DNA of 33,402 nt. Origin: Cellulomonas algicola. Lineage in GTDB: Bacteria > Actinomycetota > Actinomycetes > Actinomycetales > Cellulomonadaceae. Positions within the stretch are counted from its first letter, which is position 1. Each line of letters starts with the position of its first letter. The DNA lies in NCBI RefSeq assembly GCF_003851725.1, contig NZ_BHYL01000027.1, positions 1 through 33,402 on the forward strand, written 5' to 3'. This document shows, piece after piece, positions 1,960-31,326 of this stretch. A program made the position numbers and the translations under genes. A model generated the notes under the pieces. It saw only the letters and a list, made by a program, of their open reading frames with translations, did no database searches and was not told the DNA's origin.

Positions 1960-1983
1960 CGCGCGGGGTGACCCGCTGAGACC

Positions 1984-2023
1984 GGGGCTCCCGGGCCGGA
2001 GTGCGCACCGGTCCGGGAGCCCC
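1984..2023 (+). terminator. Intrinsic terminator of the mycodextranase gene
   Basis: A 16-bp stem (GGGGCTCCCGGGCCGG, 1984-1999, with 2008-2023; one G-U pair) closes on an 8-nt loop 25 nt after the stop codon. It is followed by TT but no long T-run, as is usual at this GC content. Confidence 0.8.
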
Positions 2024-2062
2024 TTCGTCTGCGACGGGCCCACCGCGTCAGCGGCAGGCGCG

Positions 2063-2111
2063 CGACGACGGGTGGGTGCGTCAGCGGTCCTGGCGCAGCC
2101 ACCCGTCGTCG
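2063..2111 (-). terminator. Distal hairpin after the GH42 operon
   Basis: Perfect 13-bp arms (CGACGACGGGTGG at 2063-2075 and its complement at 2099-2111) enclose a 23-nt loop. It lies about 20 nt past the GH42 stop on the minus strand and faces the terminator of the convergent mycodextranase gene. It probably acts as a second, backup terminator. Confidence 0.5.
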
Positions 2112-2148
2112 GCGACGGCCCGTCGCCGCGTCAGCGGTCCTGACGCAG
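2078..2148. repeat. 21-bp direct repeat spanning the GH42 3' end
   Basis: A 21-bp sequence at 2078-2098 recurs at 2128-2148 with one mismatch (50-bp offset). The 2128-2148 copy holds the last codons of the GH42 gene (LRQDR-stop); the other copy lies downstream in the hairpin loop. It looks like a short tandem duplication of the gene's 3' end. Confidence 0.75.
2111..2127 (-). terminator. Proximal hairpin immediately after the GH42 stop
   Basis: GGCGACG-GCC-CGTCGCC forms a 7-bp stem with a 3-nt loop, beginning 3 nt after the TGA (2131-2133) of the last GH42 gene. There is no T-run. Confidence 0.5.
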
Positions 2149-6323: not shown

Positions 6324-6401
6324 GAGGTCTCCTCAGCCGGGTGTACCGGTGGATCAGGGGCCGCGGGCGACAGCGCGCCGGCGGCGGGAACAGGGGGTGC
6401 G

Positions 6402-8296: not shown

Positions 8297-8323
8297 CGGT
8301 GTCTCCCGGGGTCGGTGAGGGGT

Positions 8324-8360
8324 GCCGGTCCCGCGGCCTGCGGAGTGCCGCGGGACCGGC
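8324..8360 (-). terminator. Intra-operon hairpin (attenuator or mRNA stabiliser) after the binding-protein gene
   Basis: A perfect 13-bp stem (GCCGGTCCCGCGG at 8324-8336, complement at 8348-8360) with an 11-nt loop, 6 nt after the binding-protein stop and 27 nt before the permease start. Such elements commonly make binding protein exceed permease. No T-run, so it is probably leaky or a 3'-end stabiliser. Confidence 0.7.
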
Positions 8361-8366
8361 GGTCCC

Positions 8367-9743
8367 TCAGTCGGCGACGGTGAAGCCCTGCTGCTCGGCG
8401 TAGGTCGTGAGCTTGTCCTGCCACGCCTGCATGGCCTCGACCAGGTCGGTCTTGTCCGCGATGGCCTTGCCGACGGTCTCCTCACCGGCGGAGTAGGCGT
8501 AGTCCATGAACGGCAGCCAGCCGAAGTCCGGCTCGACCGTCGAGGACACCTCGGCGAACAGCTTGTTGACCTCCTGGCCGCCGTAGAACTCGGACTTCTC
8601 GTCGGCGAACTGCGGGTCCTCGAGGACCTCGGTCGTGGTCGGGAACAGGAACTGCTCCGTCGCCATCGTCATCGTCGACGCCTTGTCGTGGTTGATCCAC
8701 AGCGCGAGCTGCGACGCCGCGATCGGGTTCTTGGTCGACGCGAGCACCGCGTCGGACGAGCCGCCCCAGTTGGCGGACACGTTCGCGCCGTCCTCCCACT
8801 GCGGGATCGTCGACGCGCGCCACAGGCCCGACGTGTTCGCAGCCGTGCCCTGGAGGAACACGGGCCCCCACGCGGCGGCCACCCAGGACGCGTACTTGCC
8901 GTTCGCGAGCCCCTGGTACCAGGCGTCGGTGAAGTCCGGGTCGACGGAGACCGCGTCGGCGGCGACGAGGTCGCCCCAGTACTGCGCGACCTGCGTGGCC
9001 TCGTCGGACATCAGGTCGATCGTCACCGTCTCCTTGCCGTCCCAGCCGAACGGCCGCGCACCGGCCTGCCACAGCAGCGCCGTGAACTGGCCCATGTCGT
9101 TGCCGGGCAGGTTCGTCAGGTAGAGGTTCGGGTCCTTCGCGTGCAGGTCGGTCGCCGCCTGGGCGAACGCGTCCCACGTCGTCGGGACCTCGATGCCGTG
9201 CTGCGACAGCAGGTCCTCGCGGTACAGCAGACCCATCGGGCCCGAGTCCTGCGGGACGCCCCACACCTTCTCGCCGTCGGTCGACTTGACCTGCTCCCAC
9301 ACCCACGGCACGTAGTCGTCGCCGACGTCGGCCGGCATGTACGGCGTGAGGTCGAGCAGGTTGTCGCCCAGCGCGAACGACGACAGGTGCTGGAACTCGA
9401 CCTGCGCGACGTCCGGGGCGCCTTCGCCGGCCTTCAGCGCGCTGCGGAGCTTCTGGTAGTGGTCGGCCCCCTGGCCGACGTTGACGACCTCGACGTCGAT
9501 CGCCGGGTAGGCGTCCTCGAAGAGCTTCACCTCCTTCTCGATGTCGGGGACCCACGTCCAGAAGGTCAGCTTGGTCGGCGTCTTCATGGCCTCGTCGATG
9601 TCGGCCTGGCTGACGGGGCCGGTCGTCTCGCCGCCGCCGTCGCTCCCGCCGCCGCTGCTGCAGGCGGTGAGGGCGAGCGCCGCCACGGCGACACCCGCGG
9701 TGAGCCCGGCGGCCTTGCGCCGCCACGTGATCGTCCTCGACAT
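8367..9743 (-). CDS. Sugar ABC transporter substrate-binding lipoprotein
   Basis: 458 aa, family-1 extracellular solute-binding protein (MalE/UgpB type). The N-terminus has RR-K, a hydrophobic core and lipobox LTAC with the lipidated Cys at residue 28, then a Gly/Ser linker. The mature part begins LTFWTWVPDIEKEVKLFE and has the conserved YREDLL and WDAFAQAA segments of this family, plus many Trp residues consistent with a sugar-stacking site. ATG at 9743 has GAAGGAG upstream. It lies between lacI and the two permeases, so it should bind the inducer-related galactoside. No ATPase gene is in the operon; actinobacterial systems of this type usually share one MsiK/UgpC-type ATPase (known for the group, not seen here). 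Confidence 0.95.
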   Translation of the reverse strand: MSRTITWRRKAAGLTAGVAVAALALTACSSGGGSDGGGETTGPVSQADIDEAMKTPTKLTFWTWVPDIEKEVKLFEDAYPAIDVEVVNVGQGADHYQKLRSALKAGEGAPDVAQVEFQHLSSFALGDNLLDLTPYMPADVGDDYVPWVWEQVKSTDGEKVWGVPQDSGPMGLLYREDLLSQHGIEVPTTWDAFAQAATDLHAKDPNLYLTNLPGNDMGQFTALLWQAGARPFGWDGKETVTIDLMSDEATQVAQYWGDLVAADAVSVDPDFTDAWYQGLANGKYASWVAAAWGPVFLQGTAANTSGLWRASTIPQWEDGANVSANWGGSSDAVLASTKNPIAASQLALWINHDKASTMTMATEQFLFPTTTEVLEDPQFADEKSEFYGGQEVNKLFAEVSSTVEPDFGWLPFMDYAYSAGEETVGKAIADKTDLVEAMQAWQDKLTTYAEQQGFTVAD

Positions 9744-9790
9744 GCTCCACTCCTTCGTGAAGGTCGTGCTGGTCCGGTCGGTGCGCGCGC

Positions 9791-9814
9791 CCCGCCGCGA
9801 TGGTGCGCGGCGGG
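9791..9814 (-). other. Hairpin between lacI and the binding-protein gene
   Basis: CCCGCCGCG / CGCGGCGGG, a perfect 9-bp stem with a 6-nt loop in the 115-bp gap. No T-run follows. It could be a partial terminator or processing site that separates regulator and transporter levels. I see no second copy of the operator here, so the operon may be read from the lacI promoter. Confidence 0.45.
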
Positions 9815-9858
9815 ACGCCCGGGTTGGCCTCGTGGGCCGGAGTGCGGGTGCGGCTGGG

Positions 9859-10878
9859 TCAGCCCCGCCCGCGGGGTGCTGCTGTCGTCTCCCGGACCAC
9901 GAGCTCGACCGGGACGTCCTCGCGACGGTCCTGCCGTCGCGGGTTCTCGACGGCGTCGACGAGGAGCCGGACGCCGAACGAGGCCAGGTGCGCGAGGTCC
10001 TGGCGGATCGTGGTGAGGGAACGCGTCAGGTACGCGGCCTCAGGGATGTCGTCGAAGCCGACGACGGACACGTCACCGGGGACGTCGCGACCCGCGTCGG
10101 CGAACGCGCGCAGCACGCCGATCGCCATGTGGTCGTTCGCGACGAAGACGGCGGTGACGTCGGGGTCGGCGGCGAGGCGCTGCCCGACGGCGTAGCCCGA
10201 CGGTGCGCTCCAGTCGCCGTGCAGGACCTCGGGGACGGGCGCGCCCGCCGCGGCCAGCGTCTGCCGCCAGCCGTCGGCGCGCAGCCCGGCCGACCGCCAG
10301 CCGGACGGGCCGGCGACGTGGTGGACCGTGCGGTGCCCGAGTCCCAGCAGGTGCTCGGTCGCGGCGCGGCCGCCACCCGCCTGGTCCGCGTCGACCATGA
10401 GCTCGTTCGTCGAGATGCCGTAGCGGCCCGACAGGCTGAGGAGCGGCAGGTCGCCGACCTGCGCGGCGTCGAGCGTGAAGACGCCGACGGGCTCGTTGAC
10501 GGCGATGCCGTCGACGCCCTGCTCGACGAGGTCCAGCAGCGAGCCGGTGATGCTCTCCGGGTCCCCCTCGAGCGTGTTGACGACCGACATCGCGTAGCCG
10601 GCCTCGCGGATCGCCCGCTCGATGCCGACCATGATCGACGCGGGGCCGAAGTCGGTGGACCCGACGGACAGGACGCCGATCGTCCTGCTGCGGCCGGAGA
10701 CGAGCTGACGGGCGGCACGGTTGGGCCGGTAGCCGAGGGTTGCGGCGGCGTGGCGGACCCGGTCGCGGACCTCCGGGCGGACGTGGGGGTCGCCGTTGAT
10801 GACGCGGCTCACGGTCTTCTGCGAGACGCCGGCAGCGCGCGCCACGTCCATCGCGACGACTGCTCGCTCCACGGCCAC
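9859..10878 (-). CDS. LacI-family regulator of the GH42/transporter operon
   Basis: 339 aa. N-terminal LacI helix-turn-helix (MDVARAAGVSQKTVSRVINGD, about residues 10-30) and hinge helix (RPNRAARQLVSGRSRTIGVL), then a periplasmic-binding-like effector domain with the usual VFVANDHMAIGVLRAF and DVSVVGFDDIPEAAYL segments. It should bind a sugar and repress the downstream transporter and GH42 genes. GTG at 10878 is preceded by AAGGGA; an ATG nine codons in is a possible alternative. Two identical palindromes (10909-10922 and 10933-10946) lie 31-68 bp upstream, strongly suggesting autoregulation of the whole operon. Confidence 0.93.
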   Translation of the reverse strand: MAVERAVVAMDVARAAGVSQKTVSRVINGDPHVRPEVRDRVRHAAATLGYRPNRAARQLVSGRSRTIGVLSVGSTDFGPASIMVGIERAIREAGYAMSVVNTLEGDPESITGSLLDLVEQGVDGIAVNEPVGVFTLDAAQVGDLPLLSLSGRYGISTNELMVDADQAGGGRAATEHLLGLGHRTVHHVAGPSGWRSAGLRADGWRQTLAAAGAPVPEVLHGDWSAPSGYAVGQRLAADPDVTAVFVANDHMAIGVLRAFADAGRDVPGDVSVVGFDDIPEAAYLTRSLTTIRQDLAHLASFGVRLLVDAVENPRRQDRREDVPVELVVRETTAAPRGRG

Positions 10879-16287: not shown

Positions 16288-17793
16288 TCACCGCGTCGGC
16301 GGCGCCTGGCGCTGCGTCGGCACGTGGTCGAGCAGCTGACGACGACCGTGGTCGCGGGTCGAGGTCGCGGCCTGACGGAGCGTCAGGCCGATGCCGACCA
16401 GCGCCACCACCGCGAGACCGCCCAGCCATGGCGAGGCCCCCGTCGCGGCGAGTGCGGACGGCAGCCCGGCAGCCGCGAGCGCCGCCCCGGAGCCCGCCGT
16501 GATCGCGGTCGCGGCACGCGCCGCCCCTGTCGGCGTCGACGCCGGCGCGGAGCCCGACGCTCCGCCACCCCCCACGACCGGCAGCGTCCCCACCGCGCTG
16601 CCGCCCGTGCCCACGGTGCCGCCGCCGGACACCGATCCGTTCGAGCCCGTCGAGCTCGTCGAGCCCGTCGAGCCCGGCACCGTGCCGGGGGTCGTCCCGG
16701 CCGCGGTCCCGACGGTCGCGTCACCACCGATGCCGGCGGCGACGCCCGCGACGTCGACCGGCAGCGTCACCGGCACGGACACGAGCCCGTCGCCGGACGT
16801 CGAGCCCGCCGACCCCGTGCTCGTCGACATGCCGTCGACGGCGGCGTCACCCAGGACACCGAGTGCGACCCCGGACACGTCGACCGGGACCGTCACCGGT
16901 GCCTCGACGAGCGCGCCGCCGGACGTCGCACCGGTCGGGCCCGTGGCCGAGGGCGTCGTGTCGGACGCGCCCTCGACGACCGCGTCGCCCAGGACGCCGA
17001 GCGCCACCCCGGAGACGCTGACCGGCACGGTGACCGGCGCGCTGACCGGCGAGCCGTCCGTCTCCGGTCGGCTCGCCGGCCCGTCGCTCGTGCCGACGGG
17101 CGCACCCGCGACCGAAGCGTCCCCCAGCACGCCGACCGCGATGCCCGAGAGGTGGACGGGCGCGGTCACCGGCGCGCTGACGAGCGCGGCAGGGGCGGAC
17201 GTCGAGGAGGTGCCCGCCGTGTCGGACGTGGGCGCGCCGTCGACGGCGGCGTCACCCAGGACTCCGAGCGCGACACCGGACACGGTGATCGGCGCGGTGA
17301 CGGGAAGGGCGACGGCGGTCTCGTCGTCGGTGCCCTGCGCGTCCGGACGGCTGCCGCCCGTCGACCCTGCGGTCGACGCGGACGAGCCGACCGTGGCGTC
17401 ACCGAGGACGCCCATGGCCACGCCGGCGACGTCCACCGGCGCGACGACCGGTACCTCGACGAGCGCGGCGGGCGCGGCAGGCGCCGGTGCCGGGCTGGTG
17501 ACGGGCGCGGGCGGCGGGTCCGCGGCGGGCGCGGCGGACACGGACGTCGCGTCCCCGCCGACCGCGACGGCGACTCCGGAGACGTCGACCGGCACGGTGA
17601 CCGGTGCCTGGACGAGCGTGCCCGCGTCGGGTGCGAGCCCGAGGAGACCGTCCGCACCGCCGACCTGGAGTTCGACGGACAGGGTGGCGGGTGAGGCGGG
17701 TGGTTCCGTGGCGTGGGCCAGGCCGGCCCCGGCGACGACGATGCCGCCGCTCACGAGCGCTGTCTGCAGCGCTCGACGGACGAACGTGTGCAT
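16288..17793 (-). CDS. Chaplin-like seven-repeat secreted protein with LAXTG sorting signal
   Basis: 501 aa. A signal peptide (residues 1-28, cleavage after AHA) is followed by seven copies of a roughly 25-residue repeat, consensus LV-APVTVPVDVSGVALGVLGDA, at about 60-83, 111-135, 160-184, 204-228, 249-273, 295-319 and 337-361. Ser/Thr/Gly/Pro linkers of 17-27 residues separate them. The repeat recalls the chaplin core (PV-x-V-x-G-x-x-V-x-V-x-G), but the two chaplin cysteines are absent throughout. The C-terminus has LAATG (448-452), a hydrophobic span (LGGLAVVALVGIGLTL) and an Arg-rich tail: a sortase-E type LAXTG cell-wall signal. GGAGGAG lies 7 nt before the ATG. It follows the Val/Ala/Pro-rich protein by 77 bp and probably shares its transcript. 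Chaplins form surface amyloid-like films; whether this does is inference. Confidence 0.75.
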   Translation of the reverse strand: MHTFVRRALQTALVSGGIVVAGAGLAHATEPPASPATLSVELQVGGADGLLGLAPDAGTLVQAPVTVPVDVSGVAVAVGGDATSVSAAPAADPPPAPVTSPAPAPAAPAALVEVPVVAPVDVAGVAMGVLGDATVGSSASTAGSTGGSRPDAQGTDDETAVALPVTAPITVSGVALGVLGDAAVDGAPTSDTAGTSSTSAPAALVSAPVTAPVHLSGIAVGVLGDASVAGAPVGTSDGPASRPETDGSPVSAPVTVPVSVSGVALGVLGDAVVEGASDTTPSATGPTGATSGGALVEAPVTVPVDVSGVALGVLGDAAVDGMSTSTGSAGSTSGDGLVSVPVTLPVDVAGVAAGIGGDATVGTAAGTTPGTVPGSTGSTSSTGSNGSVSGGGTVGTGGSAVGTLPVVGGGGASGSAPASTPTGAARAATAITAGSGAALAAAGLPSALAATGASPWLGGLAVVALVGIGLTLRQAATSTRDHGRRQLLDHVPTQRQAPPTR

Positions 17794-20078: not shown

Positions 20079-23000
20079 ATGCGCATCGGTGGTCCGGCAC
20101 GCACTCTCACCGTCCTCGTCGCGCTCGGTGCGCTGACGGTGACCGGCGCCCAGGCGGCGCCGACCCAGCCCGACGCGCCGCCGGCCGCCGCCGCGGGGGG
20201 CGCCCCCGCCGGCCCGTCGCAGCTCCCACCCGGCACGGACCAGGTGGTCGAGGCGCCGGCGGTCGACGACCTCACGACCGAGATCCCGATCGACCAGCGC
20301 GACGCCACGCTCGGCGACGGGTGGGAGACCTCGACCGACCAGGCGTGGACGCTCTCCGGCGACCCCGCGGGCCTGCACGTCCTCCTCGCCGACGCGTCCG
20401 ACGGCTACGCGTGGCGGACGGTCGCGACGTTGGCCCAGCCCGGCATCGAGACCGACCGATGGATCGGGAACGCGTGCCTCACGGAGTCGGGCGACCGGCT
20501 CGTCGTCGCCTACGCGCCGCGCTCGTTCACCAACGAGCCCGAGCTGTTCCTCCAGGGCGCGTGGACGGCGGTCGTCGACCTGACCAGCGGGACGGTGGCG
20601 GACCTGCCGGTGCGCGGGAGCCTCGAGTACTTCACGCCGTCGTGCGGGCACGACGAGGACGCCGTGCTCACGGTGTCGGGTGGCGACGAGCTCGCCGCGA
20701 CGCGACTGGTCACCGTCGACGCCGTGGCCGCGACCGTCGACGCCCCGGTCGACGTGTCGGGTCAGGTCACGTCGGCCGTCCCGACCGGCTCCGGGGTCGT
20801 CGCGGCCGTCGGGACGCAGGTCGCGCGCATCGACGGCGCGGGTCACGTCATCGCGCTCGCCCGCACGACCTCGGTGCCCTACGAGCTGACGACCGACGCG
20901 GACGGTGGGGTCGTCTTCCTCGAGCACGACGGGACGACGGCGACCGCACGCCGCCTCGACGCCGCACGCATCACGAAGCCCCGGCCGCGGACGGCCGCTC
21001 CCGCACTCGCGACGGGGCCCCTCGCCGAGGTCGGCGTGACACGCACGCCGCGCGGTCAGGTCCTGCTCACGGGCAAGGCCAAGGCCTCGCGCACGCTCCC
21101 CGCGACGGTCCGCGTCGCGGCTGTGCCGACGGACGCGGAGGTGAGCGTCGACGGCTCCGTCGTCGTCGACGTGACGTCCGACCACCTCCCGGTGCGCGGA
21201 CCCGACGGGAGCGTCGACGTGACCGCCCCCCTCTCGACGCTCGAGACGCGCGTCACCAGCCTCTCGACCGGTCGCACGGTCGCCGTCGACGCGGTCGTCG
21301 ACGGCGTCGCGCCCGGCACCGCAGCGCCGGACGCCGGTGCCGCCGAGCCGACCGGCGCCGACGAGCGGCCGCTCTCGGCCCCGCCGTCGCGCGCCCTCGA
21401 CCGCGGGGTGACCGCGCCGTCCGCCGTGACGACCGCCGCTGACGACCCGTACGGCGTGCACGACACGGTCGACGTGGGCCGTGGCTGCTCCGTGCCGCGC
21501 AACTCGCTGCTCAACCAGACGGTCCAGCCCAAGCCGCGGCAGGTCGAGTGGGCCGTGAACCAGGCCGTGAAGGGTGCGCTCACCGTCCAGCGGCCGGCCA
21601 ACTGGAAGAACCTCCAGATGCCCGCCTACACGCCGCAGGGGATGTTCCCGTCGATCCCGCTCCGTGGCGGCGGCGAGGTGCCCTCGCAGGTGATGCTCGG
21701 CATCCTCGCCCAGGAGTCCAACCTGTGGCAGGCGAACGGCTACGTCGTCCCCGGCGTGTCGGGCAGCCCTCTGATCGGCAACTACTACGGGATCAAGAAC
21801 GGCCTCGAGGCGAACGACCCCGACCGGTTCAACCCCGACTTCGCCGCAGTCGACTGCGGGTACGGGGTCGCGCAGGTCACGGACGGCATGCGCCTCGCGG
21901 ACACGGGGATGCCCGGCGGGCGCAGCTGGAACCAGCAGCGCGCCATCGCGCTCGACTTCGCCGCCAACGTCGCCGCGGGCCTTCAGATCCTGCAGGAGAA
22001 GTGGAACCAGACGTACGACGCCGGCATGAAGATCAACGGCGGCGACCCCTCGAAGATCGAGAACTGGTTCTACGCGATCTGGGCGTACAACTCGGGCTTC
22101 TACCCGGAGGCCGACAAGAACACGCAGGAGCGCAACGGCGCCTGGGGCGTGGGCTGGGTGAACAACCCGGCGAACCCCAGCTACCCGCCCACCCGAGGGT
22201 TCTTCCACAAGAACCCTGCCGACGCGACGCACCCGCAGGACTGGCCCTACCCCGAGCGGGTCATCGGGTTCGCCGCCTTCCCCCCGTCGCTCCTCGAGTC
22301 GCCCGGCACCTTCGTCGGGGCCTTCCGGCCGGCATGGTGGAACGGCGAGAACACGCTCGAGAACAGCAACCGGCTCGGCGCGAAGCCGCCCATCGGCGCG
22401 TTCTGCGACCCGGCTGACGGTTGCGTGTACATGGACTCCTACGGCCAGTGCGTGCACAAGAACAGCCAGGGCGTCATGGACTACCGCTGCTGGTCCCACA
22501 AACCCGTCACGTGGAAGACCAACTGCTCCTACAGCTGCGGCAACCCGTTCATCCGCTTCGTCGCCGGGTACGCCTACCAGGAGGACGGCAACGCATACCC
22601 ACCGGTCTGCGGACCGACAGGGCTCCCCTCGAACGCGCTCGTCATCGACGACGTCCCCGCCGGCACAGCACCGGTCCGCTCGGGCTGCTCGTCGCCCGCC
22701 ACGTCCGCCGGAACCTTCAGGTTCACGTTCAGCAGCGCAGACGATCCGACCGAGTTCCCGTCCAAGATGGACCTGCACCAGCTCGGCGCCGGCTACGGCG
22801 CGCACTTCTGGTTCGGGCACACGCGGACGGAGGCCGTGCGGAACGGGTCGATGGAGTTCACGGGTACGTGGACGCTCGACCGGTCCCTCGACCAGTGGGC
22901 GCGGGTCCTCGTGCACCTGCCCGACCACGGCGCGCACACGCAGGAGGCGAACTACCGCGTCCACACCGGCGTCGGCGAGCCGAAGCTGCGATCCGTCCTG

Positions 23001-24101
23001 CAGCGCACGGAGCGCAACGGGTGGGTGTCGCTCGGCGTCTTCGACATCGACGGCGTCCCGAAGGTCTCGCTCTCGACCGAGACGGAGCACGGGGACACGG
23101 TGGACGGGCAGGGCAACCCTGTCACTCCCAGCAAGAACGAGGACATCGCGTTCGACGCAGTCGCCTTCGTCCCGCTCCCTCAGCGCCCCAAGGACATCGT
23201 CGTCGCGCTCGGGGACTCGTACTCCTCGGGGGAGGGCACGGACGACTACTACGCGGAGTCGAACCAGTTCGGCAACGATCCGCGGTACCGGAACGCGTGC
23301 CACCGTTCGCCGCAGACCTGGTCCCGCCTGGCGACGATGCCCGGGTCGAGCCAGACGATCGGTCAGCGCGCCGACGCGCTGGACCCGACGATGGACTACC
23401 ACCTGCTCGCCTGCTCGGGCGCCAAGACGAACCAGGTCGTGACGGACGGTCAGTACCAGGCGCTGTCGCAGCTCGATCGGGGGTTCATCGACGAGAGCAC
23501 CACCCGGGTCACGATCTCCATCGGGGGGAACGACACCGGCTTCTCGAAGATCGCGATGTTCTGCAGCATCACCCCGCACTGCCACTACGACGTCATCACG
23601 GACGGCAGGAGCCCCTACGCGGCGGGGATCGAGAACAAGATCGCGGACGAGGTGGGGCCGGCCGTCACCGAGACCTTGCTCGCCATCCGGGACCGAGGGG
23701 AGAACGCCAAGGTCATGCTCATGGGATACCCCAAGCTCTTCTCGGGGCACGTCTGCCTGGACCCGGTCTCGATCGCCATCGACGCCAGCGAGGTGGACTG
23801 GCTGAACCGCGTGAGCGAGTTGCTCAACGCGGAGATGTCGGCGGCGGTCGACCGTGCGAACGACATCGAGGGGACCGAGTTCGCCACGTTCGCCTCGCCC
23901 GTGGAGGCGTTCGACGGCAAGACGATCTGCGGAGGTTCGCCGGCGTACATCCACAGCGTGATGTGGGACAAGAGCGAGAGCGACGAGTCCGGGTGGGACG
24001 ACTGGTGGAAGCCCGCGGCGAAGGGCATGCACCCCACGGTCGACGGGTACCGGGCCTACGCAGGCGTCGCGACGAGCGCGTTCGCGGCGATGGGCGGATG
24101 A
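20079..24101 (+). CDS. Secreted multidomain cell-wall enzyme: SLT-like transglycosylase, Cys-rich segment, golvesin-like domain, SGNH hydrolase
   Basis: 1,340 aa. Signal peptide 1-26 (AQA cleavage). Residues about 60-420 look like a beta-propeller or beta-rich region. About 530-680 resembles an SLT lytic transglycosylase: ILAQESN with catalytic E546, YGVAQV (595-600), the N-x-x-x-G segment, and AYNSG (669-673). Eight cysteines lie at 776-870. About 880-1038 resembles the golvesin C-terminal domain, ending NGWVSLGVFDIDG. The rest is an SGNH hydrolase: ALGDSYSSGEG with S1047, IGGND with N1151, and GMHPTVDGY with H1318; the usual Asp three residues before His is Lys. It would act outside the cell on peptidoglycan or an attached polymer. 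The ATG at 20079 follows AGGGGG and starts the signal peptide; an in-frame GTG at 19968 is an alternative. The stop overlaps a lipoprotein start (ATGA). Confidence 0.85.
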   Translation: MRIGGPARTLTVLVALGALTVTGAQAAPTQPDAPPAAAAGGAPAGPSQLPPGTDQVVEAPAVDDLTTEIPIDQRDATLGDGWETSTDQAWTLSGDPAGLHVLLADASDGYAWRTVATLAQPGIETDRWIGNACLTESGDRLVVAYAPRSFTNEPELFLQGAWTAVVDLTSGTVADLPVRGSLEYFTPSCGHDEDAVLTVSGGDELAATRLVTVDAVAATVDAPVDVSGQVTSAVPTGSGVVAAVGTQVARIDGAGHVIALARTTSVPYELTTDADGGVVFLEHDGTTATARRLDAARITKPRPRTAAPALATGPLAEVGVTRTPRGQVLLTGKAKASRTLPATVRVAAVPTDAEVSVDGSVVVDVTSDHLPVRGPDGSVDVTAPLSTLETRVTSLSTGRTVAVDAVVDGVAPGTAAPDAGAAEPTGADERPLSAPPSRALDRGVTAPSAVTTAADDPYGVHDTVDVGRGCSVPRNSLLNQTVQPKPRQVEWAVNQAVKGALTVQRPANWKNLQMPAYTPQGMFPSIPLRGGGEVPSQVMLGILAQESNLWQANGYVVPGVSGSPLIGNYYGIKNGLEANDPDRFNPDFAAVDCGYGVAQVTDGMRLADTGMPGGRSWNQQRAIALDFAANVAAGLQILQEKWNQTYDAGMKINGGDPSKIENWFYAIWAYNSGFYPEADKNTQERNGAWGVGWVNNPANPSYPPTRGFFHKNPADATHPQDWPYPERVIGFAAFPPSLLESPGTFVGAFRPAWWNGENTLENSNRLGAKPPIGAFCDPADGCVYMDSYGQCVHKNSQGVMDYRCWSHKPVTWKTNCSYSCGNPFIRFVAGYAYQEDGNAYPPVCGPTGLPSNALVIDDVPAGTAPVRSGCSSPATSAGTFRFTFSSADDPTEFPSKMDLHQLGAGYGAHFWFGHTRTEAVRNGSMEFTGTWTLDRSLDQWARVLVHLPDHGAHTQEANYRVHTGVGEPKLRSVLQRTERNGWVSLGVFDIDGVPKVSLSTETEHGDTVDGQGNPVTPSKNEDIAFDAVAFVPLPQRPKDIVVALGDSYSSGEGTDDYYAESNQFGNDPRYRNACHRSPQTWSRLATMPGSSQTIGQRADALDPTMDYHLLACSGAKTNQVVTDGQYQALSQLDRGFIDESTTRVTISIGGNDTGFSKIAMFCSITPHCHYDVITDGRSPYAAGIENKIADEVGPAVTETLLAIRDRGENAKVMLMGYPKLFSGHVCLDPVSIAIDASEVDWLNRVSELLNAEMSAAVDRANDIEGTEFATFASPVEAFDGKTICGGSPAYIHSVMWDKSESDESGWDDWWKPAAKGMHPTVDGYRAYAGVATSAFAAMGG

Positions 24102-24556
24102 CACCGACGTCCCGACGCCGTGTGGTGGTGACGGCGGTGCTCGCAGCCGTCACCACCACCGTCGCCACCGGCTGCTCCTCGGTCGACCGCCGGGCGGTCA
24201 GGGACGCGCAGCTGGACGGCGCGGTCGTCGAGGCGGTCGTGCGCGACGCGGTCGAGCGCGACACCGGAGCGGAGCCTGAGCAGATCGTGGAGGCGGTCGA
24301 GCAGGAGCTCTCGAACCAGGGCCAGGTGCGGTGGTGGGAGCGCTCGTCGACCGGCGGAGGATCTGCCGCCTGGCAGCTCCTCGTCGTCGGGTCTGCGGAG
24401 GAGCAGGGAGTCATCGGCTACGAGAGCGTCTTCGCCAACCTGTGCGTCGAGATCACCCTCGAGTACACGACGCGAGAGGTCAGGCTGACCGACGTCGACT
24501 GCCCGGAGGAAGCCGACGCGCCGCGCGACGGGATCGACGCCGACCTGGCGCAGTGA
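24098..24556 (+). CDS. Small lipoprotein coupled to the SLT/SGNH protein
   Basis: 152 aa, no family recognised. The N-terminus has SRRR, a hydrophobic core (VVVTAVLAAVTTTVA) and lipobox ATGC with Cys26, followed by SS, so it should be membrane-anchored and extracytoplasmic. The mature part has an acidic amphipathic helix (about 35-75, VVEAVVRDAVERD, EQIVEAVEQELS) and then a small beta-rich region with two further Cys (LCVEITLEYTTREVRLTDVDC) that could form a disulphide. ATG overlaps the stop of the large gene by 4 nt (24098-24101), so translation is coupled. That supports a partner role, for instance anchoring, activating or restraining the enzyme (inference). A strong terminator follows. Confidence 0.85.
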   Translation: MTPTSRRRVVVTAVLAAVTTTVATGCSSVDRRAVRDAQLDGAVVEAVVRDAVERDTGAEPEQIVEAVEQELSNQGQVRWWERSSTGGGSAAWQLLVVGSAEEQGVIGYESVFANLCVEITLEYTTREVRLTDVDCPEEADAPRDGIDADLAQ

Positions 24557-24612: not shown

Positions 24613-26121
24613 TCAGAGGCCCTGGGCGAGCCGCCAGTAGGCCTGGTTCCAGCGGACCTGCTCGCGGAAGCCGCGGCGGGTCGTGGACTCGTCGATGACG
24701 AGGAGCTCGGTGCGGGCGATCTCGGCGAAGTCCTCGAACACCTCGATGCCGACGGCCGTGGACAGCACGGTGTGGTGCGCGCCGCCCGCGGTGAGCCACG
24801 CCTCGGCGGAGGTGCGGAAGTCGGGGCGGGGCTGCCAGACGGCGCGGGCCACCGGCAGGTTCGGGAGCGCGGCGGTCGGCGGCACGATGTCGACGACGTT
24901 CGCGGTGAGGCGGAACCGGTCGCGCATGTCGGCGAGCGAGACGACGACGCCGACGCCCGGGTCGGTGTCGAACACCAGGCGGACGGGGTCCTCCTTGCCG
25001 CCGATGCCGAGCGGGTGGATCTCGAGCGTCGGCTTCGACGTGGTGAGCGTCGGGCAGATCTCGAGCATGTGGGCGCCGAGGATGCGCTCGTCGCCGGGCG
25101 TGAGGTCGTAGGTGTAGTCCTCCATGAGGGAGGCGCCGCCGGGCAGGCCCTGCCCCATGACCTTGGCCGCGCGGACGAGCACGGCGGTCTTCCAGTCGCC
25201 CTCGGCGCCGAAGCCGTAGCCGTCGGCCATGAGGCGCTGGACCGCGAGGCCGGGCAGCTGGCGCAGCGCGCCGAGGTCCTCGAAGTTCGTCGTGAACGCC
25301 TTCGCGCCGACGGACTCGAGGAACGTGCGCAGCGCGATCTCCTGGCGCGCGCCGTAGCGCAGCGACTCGTGCTGGTCGCCGCCACGACGCAGCGACGGGA
25401 CGACGTCGTACAGGTCCTCGTACTCGGCGACGAGCGCGTCGACCGCGGCGTCGTCGACGGCCTCGACCGCGGCGACGAGGTCGTTCACGCCCCACGTGTT
25501 GACGGAGACGCCGAACCGCAGCTCGGCCTCGGTCTTGTCGCCCTCGGTGACGGCGACGTTGCGCATGTTGTCGCCGAAGCGGACGAGGCGGAGCTCGTGC
25601 GTCGCGGCCCAGCCGGCGGCGGCACGCACCCACGTGCCGATGGACGCGCGGACGGCGGGGTTCGACGCGTGCCCGACGACGGTCTTGCGCGCGGTGCCGA
25701 GGCGCGTCGCCATGTACCCGAACTCACGGTCGCCGTGGGCGGCCTGGTTGAGGTTCATGAAGTCCATGTCGATGGTGTCCCACGGCAGCTCCACGTCGGC
25801 CTGCGTGTGCAGGTGCAGGAGCGGCTTGCGCAGCGCGTCGAGGCCGGCGATCCACATCTTCGCCGGGGAGAACGTGTGCATCCAGACGACGACGCCGAGC
25901 ACGTTGTCGTCGGCGTTCGCGTCGAGCGCTGCGCGGCGGATCGCGGCCGAGTCCTTGAGGACGGGCTTCCAGACGACCGTCGCCGGGACCTCGTCGGAGT
26001 CCTGCAGCAGGCGCGCGACCTCCTGCGACTGCTCCGCGACCTGGCGCAGCGTCTCCTCGCCGTACAGGTCCTGGCTGCCGGTGAGGAACCAGATCTCGCG
26101 GTCGGCGTACGGCTTGGTCAT
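24613..26121 (-). CDS. araA: L-arabinose isomerase
   Basis: 502 aa, matching the usual 500. Converts L-arabinose to L-ribulose in the cytoplasm, Mn-dependent. The sequence opens [21 protein letters not shown]. Active-site blocks are all present: [53 protein letters not shown] and GGAHHTVLS, which hold the two Glu and two His metal ligands of the family. ATG at 26121 overlaps the araD stop (ATGA, 26118-26121). It is the last gene of araB-araD-araA and ends facing a bidirectional terminator. Confidence 0.98.
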
Positions 26122-26885
26122 CGGGCGTTCTCCTGCTCGGTGTCGGTGGTGGTGCCGGCGGCGGGGGCGGCGGTGCCCTGGCCGTAGACGTTCTGGTAGC
26201 GGTCGTACAGCGAGTCGACGTGCTCCTGCGCGATGGGCAGCGGCTCGCCGAGCTGGCGGGAGATGTGCACGGTGCGCGCGACCTCCTCGACCATGACGGC
26301 GGCCTTGACGGCGGCCTTCGCGTCGCGGCCGATGGTGAAGGGCCCGTGGTTGCGCATGAGGACCGCGGGGCTGCGGGACTCGCGCAGGGTCTCGACGATG
26401 CCGCGGCCGATGGAGTCGTCGCCGATGAGCGCGAACGGCCCGATCGGGATGTCGCCGCCGAACTCGTCGGCCATCATCGTGAGCACGCACGGCACGGGCT
26501 CGGCGCGCGCGGCCCACGCCGTCGCGTACGTGGAGTGCGTGTGCACGACGCCGCCGACCTCGCTCATGTGCGCGTAGACGTACGCGTGCGCCGCGGTGTC
26601 GGACGACGGGGCGCGCGTGCCGTCGACGAGGTTCCCGTCGAGGTCGCAGACGACCATCGACTCGGGCGTGAGCTCGTCGTACGTCACGCCCGACGGCTTG
26701 ATGACGAACAGGTCCCGGGCGCCCGGGCCTGCCGGGTCGACGACGACGCGCTGCGAGACGTTGCCCGCGGTCCACACGACCAGCCCCCAGCGCGGCAGCT
26801 CGGCGTGCAGGCGCGCGACGACCTCGCGCGTGGTGGCGACGGCGGCGCGCACGTCGTCGGGGTAGGCGTCCAGGGGTGTCGTCAT
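26118..26885 (-). CDS. araD: L-ribulose-5-phosphate 4-epimerase
   Basis: 255 aa, class II aldolase fold, zinc-dependent; converts L-ribulose 5-phosphate to D-xylulose 5-phosphate. Seen motifs: [13 protein letters not shown], the phosphate-binding [11 protein letters not shown], zinc ligands in [13 protein letters not shown], and [10 protein letters not shown] with the third His region. The C-terminus (after about 235) is a Thr/Ala-rich tail longer than in E. coli (231 aa). ATG at 26885 is the first Met before the fold. The preceding 105 bp to araB carry 7-bp tandem repeats. Overlaps araA by 4 nt. Confidence 0.96.
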
Positions 26886-26909
26886 GCGGGTCTCGCTCCG
26901 TGTCTCGTC

Positions 26910-26941
26910 GTCGTGCGTCGTGCGTCGTGCGTACGTCGTGC
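26910..26941. repeat. Tandem GTCGTGC heptamers between araB and araD
   Basis: Three consecutive GTCGTGC copies (26910-26930), GTAC, then a fourth copy (26935-26941), in the 105-bp araB-araD gap. The transcript carries GCACGAC repeats. Likely slippage-prone spacer; a role in araD translation is unproven. Confidence 0.7.
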
Positions 26942-26989
26942 GGGTGTCGTCGGTGCGCCGGGCGGGTGCGGGCGGTGCGGGTGGCAGCC

Positions 26990-28585
26990 TCAGACGGCGT
27001 CCGCCGCCGCCTGCGCGATCGCCAGGCCGGCCGTGTAGCGCTCGAGGTAGGCGGCGAAGCCGCGCACGTCGTCCGCGTCGGGCTCGACGACGTCGACCTT
27101 CGCGTCGGCGAAGACCCGCGTGCTCAGGTACGCGCCGAGGTCGAGCTCGTCGGACGCGTCGAGGTAGGCGGCGAGCACCGCGATCCCCCACGCGCCACCC
27201 TCGCTCGCGGTGTCGCCGACCGCGACGGGCGCGTCGACGGCGGCCGCGAGCAGCCGCTGCGCGACGCCCGCGGTGCGGAACAGGCCGCCGTGCGCGAAGA
27301 GCGCGTCGACCTCGACGCCCTCCTCGGCGAGCAGCCGCATGCCGAGGCTGAGCGTGCCGAACGCGCCGTAGACCTGGGTGCGCGCGACGTTGGCGAGCGT
27401 GAGGCGGCTGTCGGGCGTGCGGACGACGAGCGGGCGGCCCTCCGCGAGGCCCGCGATGGGCTCGCCGGACAGGAAGTTGTACGCGAGGAGGCCGCCGCCG
27501 TCGGCGTCACCGTCGAGCGCCGCGCGCAGGAACGTGCCGAAGACCGCGTCGGCGTCGGTGTCGTGGCCGGACGCGACCGCGAACTGGCGGAACACCTCGG
27601 CCCACGCGCCGAGCTCGCTCGCACCGTTGTTGCAGTGCACCATCGCGACGAGGTCGCCCGCGGGCGTCGTCACGAGGTCGATCTCGGTGTGCACCCGCTC
27701 GAGCGCCTTCTCGAGCACGATCATCGCGAAGATGCTGGTGCCGACGCTGACGTTGCCGGTGCGGGGCGCGACCGCGTTGGTCGCGACCATGCCGGTGCCG
27801 GCGTCGCCCTCGGGCGGGCACAGGGCCGTGCCGGCCCGCAGCGTGCCCGACGGGTCGAGCAGCGCGGCGCCCTCGTCGGTCAGGCGGCCCGCCTCCTGGC
27901 CCGCGACGAGCACCTCGGGCAGCACGTCGGCGAGGCGCAGGCCGGGCTGGCGCTCGGCGACGAGGTCGTCGAACTGGGCGAGCATGCGCGCGTCGTAGTC
28001 GCGCGTCGCGGGGTCGATCGGGAAGACGCCCGACGCGTCGCCGACGCCCAGCACCCGGCTGCCGGTGAGCTTCCAGTGCACGTACCCGGCGAGCGTCGTG
28101 ACGAACGCGACCTGCGGGACGTGCGGCTCCTCGTCGAGCACCGCCTGGTAGAGGTGCGCGATCGACCAGCGCAGCGGGATGTTGTGCCCGAACAGGCCCG
28201 TGAGCTCGGTGGCCGCGGCCTCGGTCGACGTGTTGCGCCACGTGCGGAACGGCACGAGCAGCTCGCCGTCGGCGTCGAACGCGAGGTAGCCGTGCATCAT
28301 CGCGGAGACGCCGAGCGCGCGCAGGGCCGTCGGCCGCACGCCGTGCTTCTCCTCGGCGTCCGCGAGCAGCGCCGCGACGGACTCCTGCAGGCCGGTCCAG
28401 ACGGCGTCGAGCGAGTACGTCCACGTGCGGTCGACGAACTGGTTCTCCCACGCGTGGCTGCCGGTCGCGAGGACCGTGCCGTCGGCGGCGACGAGGCACG
28501 CCTTGATGCGCGTGGAGCCGAGCTCGATGCCGAGGGTCGCCTCGCCTGCGCTGATCGCGTCTCGTGCCTGGGCGGGGTCGACCAT
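26990..28585 (-). CDS. araB: Ribulokinase, FGGY carbohydrate kinase family
   Basis: 531 aa. Phosphorylates L-ribulose with ATP. N-terminal phosphate-1 loop [29 protein letters not shown] and RTWRN follow as in FGGY kinases; the C-terminal domain holds [40 protein letters not shown] and [17 protein letters not shown], the adenosine-binding part. It resembles the actinobacterial ribulokinase type, more xylulokinase-like than E. coli AraB; assignment rests largely on the araD-araA context. ATG at 28585 follows AAGGAG at 8 nt. A LacI-type operator overlaps its likely -10. Confidence 0.93.
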
Positions 28586-28675
28586 CGTCGCGGCTCCTTC
28601 GTCGCTGGTGGCGGGTGCCGACGACGTGCCGGGCACCCCTCGCTCGTGCACCGTCAGATCGCGGTGCGTGAGCCA

Positions 28676-28706
28676 ATGTTAGCGCTCACATCGGGTGGGC
28701 GGTCCA
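28676..28706 (-). promoter_or_regulatory. araBDA promoter and LacI-type operator
   Basis: The near-perfect palindrome ATGTTAGCGCTCACAT (28676-28691) has a central CG core typical of LacI-family operators and resembles AraR sites of other actinobacteria as I recall them. On the minus strand its end reads TAACAT, a good -10 box; TGGACC (28706-28701), 19 bp upstream, is a possible -35. Repressor binding would block polymerase. The start codon is about 90 bp downstream. Confidence 0.7.
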
Positions 28707-28807
28707 GCCCGGAGGTCCCACGCCGCGCTCGGTCGCGCGACGTCGGGCACGGTCCGCCGCACGGCGTCGTGCGCGGTCCGGCGGCCCCGGCGACGCAGAG
28801 CGTCCCG

Positions 28808-29875
28808 TCAGGCACGGGCACCGCTGCTCACCCGCACGACGAGCTCCGCAGGGATCAGCCGGTGGCCCGGGTCGCCGCCCGACATCGCCGTCTCCAGCGT
28901 GTCGATCGCCAGCAGCCCGAGCGCCGAGAAGTCCTGCCGCACCGTCGTCAGCGGCGGGACGTAGTGCGCCGACCCGACCTCGTCGTCGAAGCCCACCAGC
29001 GCCACGTCGTCCGGCACGCGCACCCCCGCCTCCCAGAACGCGTGCAGCAGACCCAGCGCGAGCTGGTCGTTCGCCGCGAAGACCGCGTCCGGCAGGCCCT
29101 CGCGCACCAGGCGGCGCCCCACGTCGTACCCGTCGGACGCACCCCAGCCGACGACCACGGGCTCGTCGACCGGCACGCCCGCGGCCGCGCACTCCGCACG
29201 CCACCCGACCAGCCGGTCCTGCGCGTCGAACCAGTCCTGCGGACCCGCCACGTGCAGCACGCGCGACCGCCCCGCCTCGAGCAGGTGCGCGGTCGCGAGC
29301 CGCGCGCCCTGCTGCTGGTCGACACCCACCGCGTGCAGGTGCGGCTCCGACGGCACGTCCGCCGCCGACGACACCACGACCACCGGCACCGGGGAGTCGA
29401 GCGCCGCGAGCACGTCGACCGCCTGCACCGTCGGCGCGATGATCGCCACGCCGTCCACGCCCTGCCCCAGGAAGTGCTCGAACGCGTGGTGCATCGCGTC
29501 GCCGTCGAACTGCCGCAGCGTCGCGACCGACACGAACCAGCCCGCGACCCGCGCGGCCTCCTCGACCCCGACCAGCGTGCTCGTCGGCCCGTAGAGCGCG
29601 GTCGCGGGCGTCACGACCCCGACCGTGCCCGTCCGGCGCGTGACCAGCGCACGCGCCGCGCTGTTGCGCCGGTAGCCGAGCTCCGCGATCGCCGCGAGCA
29701 CACGGTCCCGCGTCTCCGGGCGCACCGACGGGTGGTCGTTGAGCACGCGCGACACCGTCTGGTGCGACACGCCCGCGCGGGCCGCGACGTCGCTCATCGC
29801 CGGTGGTCGGCCCGTCGTCCCGTTGCGCGCAGCGGCCGGGCGCGCCGTCGCCCCGTCCGTCCCGATCTCGGCCAC
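28808..29875 (-). CDS. LacI-family regulator, probable arabinose repressor
   Basis: 355 aa from GTG 29875; an ATG at codon 27 (29797) is an equally plausible start, immediately before the DNA-binding domain. Helix-turn-helix: MSDVAARAGVSHQTVSRVLND; hinge helix YRRNSAARALVTRRTGTVGVV. The effector domain has VFAANDQLALGLLHAFWE, VALVGFDDEVGSAHYVPPLTT and a DWFDAQDRLVGW sugar-site segment. It lies 222 bp upstream of araB, same strand, with a LacI-type operator between them, so it most likely controls araBDA in response to arabinose. It acts as the functional equivalent of LacI-type AraR (inference). Confidence 0.92.
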   Translation of the reverse strand: MAEIGTDGATARPAAARNGTTGRPPAMSDVAARAGVSHQTVSRVLNDHPSVRPETRDRVLAAIAELGYRRNSAARALVTRRTGTVGVVTPATALYGPTSTLVGVEEAARVAGWFVSVATLRQFDGDAMHHAFEHFLGQGVDGVAIIAPTVQAVDVLAALDSPVPVVVVSSAADVPSEPHLHAVGVDQQQGARLATAHLLEAGRSRVLHVAGPQDWFDAQDRLVGWRAECAAAGVPVDEPVVVGWGASDGYDVGRRLVREGLPDAVFAANDQLALGLLHAFWEAGVRVPDDVALVGFDDEVGSAHYVPPLTTVRQDFSALGLLAIDTLETAMSGGDPGHRLIPAELVVRVSSGARA

Positions 29876-30187
29876 GCCGCCTCGACTTCCCGTGCTCGTC
29901 CGGGGTCCGTCCCCGTCCGCCGTCCGCCGCCTCGCGACGTCCGTCCCGCCAGTCCTACCGCCTCACCGGGTCCCGGGAGGCTCGATCGCGCCGACCCGTG
30001 CCGCCGCGCCCATGTTTCGATAGTCCACGACCCGCATGATCGCCCCTCGTGCCCCGTCGCGACGCTGGTCCCGCGCAGCGCGGGCGACCCGGCGCCCGGT
30101 CGAACGGTGGTGCCGTCACCGACTCGTTTCGACGCGTCCGACGGGCGTGCGCCCGGCTCCGACCGCGCCAGGGCGCGACGCGCGCCG
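29876..30187. other. 312-bp intergenic region between the LacI regulator and proC
   Basis: No gene seen. Around 30011-30026 lies the only AT-rich patch, CATGTTTCGATAGTC, which shares ATGTT and a central CG with the araB operator but is not a palindrome; it may be part of the lacI promoter. Two small stems follow the proC stop: GGCGCG-ACG-CGCGCC (30172-30186) and CGGGC-GTGC-GCCCG (30142-30155). Confidence 0.4.
30172..30186 (-). terminator. Hairpin after proC
   Basis: GGCGCG-ACG-CGCGCC, a 6-bp stem directly after the stop codon, with a second small stem about 20 nt further on. No T-run. Confidence 0.4.
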
Positions 30188-31021
30188 TCAGCCCGCGTAC
30201 TGCGCGCCGAGCTCCCGGGAACGCTCCGCGGCCGCGCGTGCCGCCGCGACGACGCCCGCTCGCACACCGTGCGCGTCGAGCGCCGCGACCGCCGCCACCG
30301 TCGTCCCGCCCGGCGACGACACGCGCTCGCGCAGCACCACCGGATGGTCCCCCGACTGCGCCGCGAGCGCCGCCGCACCCTCGACCGTCGCGACCGCGAG
30401 GCGCGTCGCCAGGTCCCGCGTGAGCCCGAGCAGCACGCCTGCCTCGGCCATCGCGTCGACCAGGTAGAACGCGTACGCCGGGCCCGAGCCCGAGATCGCG
30501 GTCACCGCGTCGAGGTCCTTCTCCGCGACGCGCACGACCAGGCCGGTCGCGGCGAGCAGCTTCTCGACGAGCACCAGGTGCCCCTCGGTCGCGTGCGCGC
30601 CGCCCGCGATCGCGCTCGCACCCTTGCCGACGACCGCCGGGGTGTTCGGCATGACGCGGACCACCGGCGTGCCGGCCGGCAGTCGCTGCTCGTAGAACGC
30701 GATCGGCAGACCGGCCGCGACCGACACCACGAGCGCGCCGCCCCGCAGGGCCGACGCGATCTCGTCCAGCACCGACCCGACGACGTGGGGCTTCACCGCG
30801 ACCAGCACGACGTCCGCGCGCGCCGCCGCGTCCACGTTCGACGCGCCCGTCCGGACCGCGTACCGGCCGGCGAGCTCGTCCGCGCGCGCCGTCGCGTGCT
30901 CCGTCACCTCGACCTGCTCGGGCGTCCAGCCCGCCGTGAGCAGCGCACCGAGGAGCGCCTCCCCCATCACGCCGCCGCCCAGGACCGCCACCTGCGGGGT
31001 GCCGCCCGCTGTGTCCGTCAT
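30188..31021 (-). CDS. proC: Pyrroline-5-carboxylate reductase
   Basis: 277 aa, the usual length. Reduces pyrroline-5-carboxylate to L-proline with NAD(P)H in the cytoplasm. Rossmann motif VAVLGGGVMGEALL at residues 11-24; AVKPHVV; RVMPNTPAVVGKGASAI; substrate-site helix AISGSGPAYAFYLVDAM; and VSSPGGTTVAAV, the C-terminal signature. ATG at 31021 follows GGGAGG at 6 nt, and TAGGCT (31063-31068, minus strand) is a possible -10. A 5-bp stem (GCCCG-GCGT-CGGGC, 31040-31053) lies in the leader. It stands alone between two unrelated units. Confidence 0.97.
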   Translation of the reverse strand: MTDTAGGTPQVAVLGGGVMGEALLGALLTAGWTPEQVEVTEHATARADELAGRYAVRTGASNVDAAARADVVLVAVKPHVVGSVLDEIASALRGGALVVSVAAGLPIAFYEQRLPAGTPVVRVMPNTPAVVGKGASAIAGGAHATEGHLVLVEKLLAATGLVVRVAEKDLDAVTAISGSGPAYAFYLVDAMAEAGVLLGLTRDLATRLAVATVEGAAALAAQSGDHPVVLRERVSSPGGTTVAAVAALDAHGVRAGVVAAARAAAERSRELGAQYAG

Positions 31022-31326
31022 CGTCGTCCTCCCTCGTGCGCCCGGCGTCGGGCGACGACGCGAGCCTACCGACGCGCGCGGCGCACCCTCGCCGCCGCCC
31101 GACCCGTCCGCCACCGCGCGCCCGCCGGTGTGCGATCGCGCCGAGCTCGTGAGGTGCGGCTCACCACCCCGCCAGGAGGTGACGACCTCGACGACGCGAC
31201 GGATCGGTCGGCGTGCGGTGCGGGGTGCCGGTGGTCGCGCACATGCGAGCTCGCGGGTGCGACGACGAGCGGGACCTCCTGCGCGGACGGCGAGGACGGG
31301 GCGCTGAGGCGGGCGGGGCGAGGCGG
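31022..31326. other. 305-bp intergenic region upstream of proC
   Basis: Apart from the possible proC -10 box (31063-31068) and a short leader stem, it holds GTGAG-N6-CTCAC (31148-31163), a weak inverted repeat. No gene and no clear terminator for the adaptor gene was found. Confidence 0.35.

What the first reader, a model, noticed from the sequence alone, without database searches (positions are those of the whole stretch)
20079..24101. One polypeptide joins a lytic transglycosylase, a golvesin-like domain and an SGNH esterase
The sequence shows an SLT-like active-site set (E546, YGVAQV, AYNSG), eight clustered Cys, a golvesin-like domain and SGNH blocks (S1047, N1151, H1318). Lytic transglycosylases need a free C6 hydroxyl on MurNAc, so O-acetylated peptidoglycan blocks them; in Gram-negatives separate SGNH-type esterases (Ape) remove that acetyl. 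This fusion could do both steps on one substrate: de-O-acylate, then cleave. I do not know of a described enzyme with this order.
Basis: partly seen in the sequence, partly recalled or inferred. Interest (0 to 1): 0.75.

Follow-up and report, generated by a model that had tools for sequence, protein, structure and literature searches.

The report
Secreted wall-cutting protein with interchangeable warheads
A large, probably secreted protein of soil bacteria carries what looks like a wall-cutting module in its front part and an exchangeable enzyme at its tail, often next to a small matching gene, so it looks less like a cell-wall housekeeping enzyme and more like a modular weapon against neighbouring bacteria, although nothing has been tested at the bench.

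Summary
In detail: one 1340-aa protein with an SLT-like motif set (E546, YGVAQV, AYNSG), eight clustered Cys, a golvesin domain and a C-terminal SGNH domain (S1047, N1151, H1318). The SLT assignment rests on motifs and weak Pfam hits; two AlphaFold models did not resolve it. The combination is not unique. Among 103 core proteins (one a duplicate) the part before the last domain is shared and the tail is not: SGNH 68, NucA/NucB-type nuclease 14, an unknown domain 14, RHS repeats 2, no tail 5. Six pairs 70-78% identical in the front part carry tails of different classes. The neighbouring gene tends to follow the tail: small membrane-type or lipoproteins after SGNH tails (here a 152-aa lipoprotein overlapping the stop codon), SUKH immunity-family genes beside nuclease tails. 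The SGNH domain is closest to Streptomyces phospholipase A1 and lipase, less to peptidoglycan O-acetylesterases. Best reading: a secreted polymorphic-toxin-like family with a built-in peptidoglycan-cutting module, exchangeable effector and adjacent immunity gene. 'De-O-acetylate, then cleave' is not needed for the core, which also occurs with a nuclease, but is not excluded for SGNH members. Toxicity and immunity are untested; outside Streptomyces the partner gene is often missing.

The parts
20079..24101 (+). whole protein, 1340 aa, with N-terminal signal-like segment
   Evidence: start agrees with homologue L002
20079..20159 (+). Sec-type signal peptide (about residues 1-27, ...GAQA|AP), judged by eye
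   Evidence: sequence; no predictor was run
20160..21488 (+). conserved N-terminal region, residues 28-470, fold not identified
   Evidence: 7 homologues; only a chance-level PDB match
21519..22388 (+). SLT-like region (residues 481-770); Glu546 codon 21714-21716; YGVAQV and AYNSG motifs
   Evidence: fold not confirmed
22404..22688 (+). cluster of eight Cys (776-870)
   Evidence: C776, C782, C791, C820, C844 invariant and C870 nearly invariant in 79 cores
22845..23171 (+). golvesin C-terminal-like domain (residues 923-1031); tails are exchanged at its end (NEDIAFDAVAFVP)
23199..24059 (+). C-terminal SGNH hydrolase (residues 1041-1327); S1047 at 23217-23219, N1151 at 23529-23531, H1318 at 24030-24032
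24098..24556 (+). small lipoprotein (152 aa, lipobox ...ATGC by eye) overlapping the stop codon by 4 bases (ATGA); proposed immunity protein
   Evidence: comparable gene at the same place in L002, L003, L005

Best explanation
It is one member of a family of secreted, modular antagonism proteins of actinobacteria. A shared front part (signal peptide, N-terminal region, SLT-type lytic transglycosylase, Cys-rich segment, golvesin beta-sandwich) binds and locally opens the peptidoglycan of a neighbouring cell; a C-terminal effector, exchangeable at a border at the end of the golvesin domain, then acts on what lies beneath. In this member the effector is an SGNH hydrolase, most likely acting on membrane phospholipids. 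The producer protects itself with the product of the adjacent gene, here a membrane-anchored lipoprotein. Shown by comparison: shared core, tail exchange, invariant catalytic residues, tail-linked neighbour genes. Inferred: secretion, wall cutting, substrate, delivery of the tail, toxicity, immunity.
For: 103 core proteins fall into tail classes SGNH 68, unknown 14, nuclease 14, RHS 2, no tail 5 (L150 repeats L006). Six pairs 70-78% identical over 883-1024 aa carry tails of different classes (L116/L121, L116/L122, L112/L117, L115/L117, L051/L118, L067/L068); identity is 81-95% at residues 540-719, 40-52% at 960-1019 and 19-37% at 1020-1079. Nuclease tail: Pfam NucA/NucB 3.9e-7 in L049 (1 of 3 scanned proteins of that class); CDE[FY]xFA in all 14 aligned. 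Convergent neighbour of nuclease tails: SUKH-1 in 8 of 10 scanned, 7 over cut-off, out of 13 of 14 loci with such an ORF; L049 by record annotation. NucA toxin with SUKH immunity is a recorded pair (PMC3482391, passages). After SGNH tails the next same-strand gene is <=300 aa with a hydrophobic segment in 39 of 51 loci, after unknown tails 6 of 12, nuclease tails 1 of 14, background 11 of 124; further set: SGNH 7 of 16, unknown 1 of 2. Among pairs with front part >=70% identical, a homologous downstream ORF is shared in 26 of 27 when tails are >=65% identical, 5 of 15 at 45-65%, 1 of 17 when same-class tails are <45%, 0 of 6 across classes. RHS repeats behind the same core in 2 proteins. Patchy, sometimes multi-copy: 37 of 150 genomes of one genus, up to 8 matches in one genome. 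SGNH nearest to PLA1 4hyq and lipase 5mal.
Against: No killing or immunity data. Only three common tail types, few for a polymorphic toxin family. 12 of 51 and 9 of 16 SGNH loci have no rule-passing neighbour; in the second set 6 of 8 loci of genus g10 pass but only 1 of 8 others, and that one (L150, same locus as L006) is an alpha/beta hydrolase gene; L006 and the doubtful L096 are also among the 39. SUKH genes are convergent, not co-directional. SLT fold unconfirmed: low pLDDT; hhalign against 19 SLT domains probability 0.95%, E 0.058; no PDB match of the SLT profile up to E 10. Nothing is known of the lipoprotein: no family over cut-off. The six cross-class pairs re-use some members (L116, L117 twice each) and are not six independent events.
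Confidence: 0.66

Rival explanations
1. Modular scavenging or lysis enzymes: a wall-lytic core fused to whichever hydrolase helps digest dead or living cells (lipase, nuclease, others). The neighbour genes are accessory proteins, not immunity.
For: Few tail types, two of them hydrolases; many SGNH members, mainly outside genus g10, show no candidate partner; no toxicity data. That secreted lipases and nucleases are common in these bacteria is recalled, not tested.
Against: Downstream gene follows the tail among proteins with closely similar front parts, SUKH immunity-family genes beside nuclease tails, RHS repeats behind the core, patchy and multi-copy distribution.
Confidence: 0.18
2. One reading: a two-step wall enzyme; SGNH removes O-acetyl (or another acyl) from peptidoglycan or a wall polymer so that the fused transglycosylase can cut.
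For: SGNH and the SLT-like core in one chain in 68 of 103 cores; the golvesin+SGNH model aligns with CE2 esterases (rank 3 is 4xvh, E 2e-10, TM by target 0.46) and with Ape1 (4k3u, 8gld, 8gkd; E 4e-8 to 2e-7, TM by target 0.29-0.34).
Against: The core keeps its invariant catalytic set with nuclease, unknown and RHS tails; the SGNH profile finds only a phospholipase A1, a lipase and an esterase in the PDB up to E 0.01, no peptidoglycan O-acetylesterase.
Confidence: 0.1
3. Mobile-element function: wall opening for transfer or establishment of plasmids.
For: 48 plasmid records hold a match; 15 of the 16 plasmid records fetched are linear, 1 circular.
Against: In the window no transfer gene family was matched among the frames scanned; neighbourhoods of the other chromosomal copies were not surveyed for transfer genes. 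Tails of the known classes are not transfer functions.
Confidence: 0.06

Closest known systems
Polymorphic toxin systems (Zhang et al. 2012, PMC3482391; passages seen)
   Same: near-constant N-terminal part, variable C-terminal domain, adjacent immunity-type gene; NucA toxin with SUKH immunity is listed there
   Different: front part with an SLT-like module: 'SLT', 'transglycosylase' and 'SGNH' have 0 hits in the 300,000 characters of main text held; the listing counts one 'transglycosylase' in the full text, not seen
Streptomyces umbrella toxins UmbC (PMC11062931; passages seen)
   Same: secreted toxins of Streptomyces with exchangeable C-terminal domains and, for two of three in S. coelicolor, a downstream immunity gene
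   Different: ALF repeats, coiled coils and lectin partners; 'transglycosylase' 0 hits; 77 toxin families against four tail types here; here one chain with its own SLT-like module
Streptomyces albidoflavus phospholipase A1 (4hyq) and S. rimosus lipase (5mal)
   Same: nearest solved relatives of the tail by sequence and fold
   Different: the solved chains are 234-236 aa, without the other domains
Ape1 peptidoglycan O-acetylesterases and CE2 esterases
   Same: fold matches spanning golvesin and SGNH
   Different: lower TM-scores; no sequence match
SLT (PF01464) lytic transglycosylases
   Same: order of E, YG..Q and A-Y-N-S-G motifs; Pfam match at E<=0.05 in 45 of 79 cores
   Different: weak scores, a longer stretch between the Glu and YG..Q than in 19 actinobacterial SLT domains, fold unconfirmed
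Polyvalent proteins with lysozyme domains (PMC5512222; passages seen)
   Same: idea of a wall-cutting domain in the same chain as effectors, to breach peptidoglycan
   Different: proteins of phages and conjugative elements, thought to enter with the element's DNA

Membership tests
Polymorphic toxin system | near-constant N-terminal part with exchanged C-terminal domains | tested here: met
Polymorphic toxin system | adjacent gene that changes with the tail | tested here: met
   26 of 27 against 5 of 15, 1 of 17 and 0 of 6; not every locus has a partner
Polymorphic toxin system | known toxin and immunity families among members | tested here: met
   NucA/NucB Pfam hit in L049 and shared motif in 14 tails, SUKH-1 in 8 of 10 scanned neighbours, RHS in 2; none for the SGNH member of the window itself
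Polymorphic toxin system | toxicity and neutralisation by the neighbour | not testable with these tools
   needs experiments
SLT lytic transglycosylase | catalytic Glu plus YG..Q and AYN-type motifs in order | tested here: met
SLT lytic transglycosylase | profile match over the curated cut-off | tested here: inconclusive
   window protein under cut-off; 45 of 79 cores at E<=0.05, best 2.3e-6; L123 over cut-off
SLT lytic transglycosylase | lysozyme-like fold around E546 | tested here: inconclusive
   AlphaFold pLDDT too low; hhalign E 0.058; no PDB match of the profile
SGNH hydrolase | profile match and catalytic S, N, H | tested here: met
Peptidoglycan O-acetylesterase (Ape) | closest relatives are peptidoglycan O-acetylesterases | tested here: not met
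   sequence profile finds PLA1, lipase, esterase only; Ape1 appears as lower-ranked fold match. Substrate itself not testable here
Golvesin_C domain | profile match | tested here: met
   79 of 79 cores at E<=0.05; the window protein itself is under the curated cut-off

The most novel reading that the evidence does not exclude
A further secreted polymorphic-toxin class of Streptomyces and other actinobacteria, distinct from umbrella toxins, in which one polypeptide brings its own peptidoglycan-cutting drill and an exchangeable warhead (phospholipase, nuclease, unknown, RHS), with the immunity protein placed in the compartment where the warhead acts.
Probability: 0.48. Interest if true: 0.82.

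Novelty: new variant of a known kind. Interest (0 to 1): 0.67.

Why it matters
How secreted protein toxins get into Gram-positive rivals is open: the umbrella-toxin paper lists the mechanism of translocation into target cells among its outstanding questions (passages). A family with an SLT-like module and swappable tails in one chain makes the wall-crossing step directly testable by comparing wild type with an E546 mutant. It would also give meaning to many proteins now annotated only as SGNH/GDSL hydrolases or hypothetical proteins.

Tried and rejected
Structure of residues 481-1340 from 7 sequences: mean pLDDT 50; golvesin and SGNH parts usable, SLT part not. Cropped 290-aa SLT job: mean pLDDT 37, not used for a fold search. 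SLT-part profile against PDB: no match up to E 10. Whole-core profile against PDB: one irrelevant weak match, E 0.029. N-terminal region: chance-level match only. Unknown tail: chance-level match only. Nuclease-tail profile: no PDB match up to E 0.1. Core in viral contigs: none in one scan. Phages: 3 records, SGNH part only. PADLOC: none. NCBIfam: none for this protein. The first SLT reference alignment A9 held wrong-strand translations for minus-strand loci and was replaced by A10. Literature: searches listed no paper that I recognised as describing this core; the library holds open-licence papers only, and most listed papers were seen as listings.

Counting notes. The neighbour listing used a filter that missed genes, the window's lipoprotein among them; counts therefore come from the fixed rule, applied alike to background genes, L097 dropped for short flank. 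One search lists the loci: the 39 include the window but also L006 (alpha/beta hydrolase) and L096 (doubtful frame); L007, L038, L047, L052 and L111 fail the rule although a lipoprotein or membrane-type gene is seen there by eye. Fisher p-values printed are nominal because loci are related. One search used 77 loci (three main classes, enough flank); L040/L044 was scored as sharing a downstream ORF (36.9%) although the annotated next genes look different. L068 has a broken tail and is counted in the unknown class; L097 is cut by a contig end; L052 and L157 lack much of the N-terminal region. Alignment A7 held 79 of the 83 first cores, A6 51 of 52 SGNH tails, A5 11 of 12 unknown tails, A8 40 cores.
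Full report
Observation. Pfam supports SGNH clearly, and golvesin and SLT below their cut-offs, for this protein; of 79 homologous cores golvesin matches 79 and SLT 45 at E<=0.05, with E546 and the DCGYG, Q and Y-N columns invariant. The organism is probably a Cellulomonas: the best relative in the genome collection is in Cellulomonas sp. Leaf334, 67% in its best segment.

How common. One scan of genome contigs found six relatives matched over most of the protein, in Cellulomonas (3), Catellatospora, Planobispora and Clavibacter. Of plasmid records 48 match, 37 of them Streptomyces; in 14 one place covers at least 80% of the protein. In the class 16 of 394 genomes; among 19 near genomes, own included, 2 have a long match (G000, G002). 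It is patchy and sometimes multi-copy.

The tail is exchangeable. I collected 83 core proteins, then 103; L150 repeats L006. Clustering the part after the golvesin domain gives SGNH 68, unknown 14, NucA/NucB-type 14, RHS 2, no tail 5. The nuclease class rests on a Pfam hit in L049, one of three such proteins scanned, and on CDE[FY]xFA in all 14; the RHS class on 13 and 11 RHS repeats. Six pairs share 70-78% of the front part yet have tails of different classes; identity is 81-95% at residues 540-719, falls to 40-52% at 960-1019 within the golvesin domain, and to 19-37% at 1020-1079, the clear break being at DIAxxxVAFxP. On two Streptomyces plasmids (L040, L044) the front 1019 aa are 95% identical, as is DNA reaching 2.8 kb upstream, while the SGNH tails are 48% identical and the annotated next genes are a 140-aa membrane-type and a 287-aa lipoprotein-type protein.

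The neighbour follows the tail. In the window a 152-aa lipoprotein starts inside the stop codon; L002, L003 and L005 have a comparable gene there, 20-36% identical. By one fixed rule a small gene with a hydrophobic segment follows 39 of 51 SGNH genes, 6 of 12 unknown-tail genes, 1 of 14 nuclease genes and 11 of 124 background genes. A second set gave 7 of 16 for SGNH: 6 of 8 in g10, 1 of 8 elsewhere, that one a hydrolase gene. So the link is strong in g10 and weak in other lineages sampled, although the window and L002, L003 and L005 have it. Nuclease tails instead have a convergent SUKH-1 gene: 8 of 10 scanned, from 13 of 14 loci with a convergent ORF. With the front part at >=70% identity, a shared downstream ORF tracks tail identity: 26 of 27, 5 of 15, 1 of 17, and 0 of 6 across classes.

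What the SGNH tail does. Profile search: S. albidoflavus phospholipase A1 6.5e-34, S. rimosus lipase 2.9e-29, S. scabies esterase 5.2e-14 (the species of the last is recalled, the table says ESTERASE), nothing else up to E 0.01. Fold search with a model of mean pLDDT 50: the first two again, TM-score by target 0.78 and 0.77; CE2-type esterases 0.33-0.46 and Ape1 0.29-0.34 among the next ranks. I favour a lipid substrate; a wall ester remains possible.

Mechanism. Shown by comparison: anatomy, invariance, exchange, linked neighbours. Inferred: export, wall cutting, delivery, killing, immunity. NucA with SUKH is a recorded toxin-immunity pair (PMC3482391, passages). Streptomyces umbrella toxins are the closest ecological analogue; that paper states that polymorphic toxin systems had not been identified in Streptomyces before and lists translocation as an open question (PMC11062931, passages).

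Weak points. The SLT fold is not confirmed. There are few tail types. Many loci outside g10 lack a partner. All evidence is comparative.

Novelty. Eight searches of the open-licence library listed no paper that I recognised as describing this front part. It is built like a polymorphic toxin; membership is met on architecture and untested on function.

Noticed in passing
window 16288-17793 (-): Chaplin-type domain (ChpA-C), three matched stretches at E<=1, one at E<=0.001, in a long reading frame.
   Followed up: no
window 24613-31114 (-): Arabinose-type sugar gene group: L-arabinose isomerase, class II aldolase, FGGY kinase, LacI regulator, then a P5C reductase-like gene.
   Followed up: no
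window 217-10878: Alpha-1,3-glucanase-like protein, GH42 beta-galactosidase, ABC permease, LacI regulator.
   Followed up: no
L045, L047, L048 upstream of the core gene: CU044_5270 family and peptidase inhibitor I36 family genes in all three, an RNA polymerase sigma factor gene in L045 and L047.
   Followed up: no
L046, L049, L051: ABC transporter ATPase and peptidoglycan-binding protein genes (also a permease in L049 and L051) beside the core gene.
   Followed up: no
L053 and L123: Same core fused to RHS repeats with hydrophobic C-terminal ends.
   Followed up: partly
tails of L041, L046, L051, L064, L065, L069, L073, L117, L120-L122 (aligned); also L068, L149, L168: An unidentified tail domain of about 420-470 aa; in the 11 aligned, conserved Cys, A[PG]PIWQ and NPW; no meaningful PDB match.
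   Followed up: partly
L088:5664-6491 (-): DUF6461 gene beside a nuclease-tail gene instead of SUKH; possibly another immunity family.
   Followed up: no
L003:12500-12976 and L007:13027-13509: A further small secreted-looking protein gene downstream in both.
   Followed up: no
L103, L105, L108, L156, L167: Core proteins that end at or just after the golvesin domain, without a tail.
   Followed up: no
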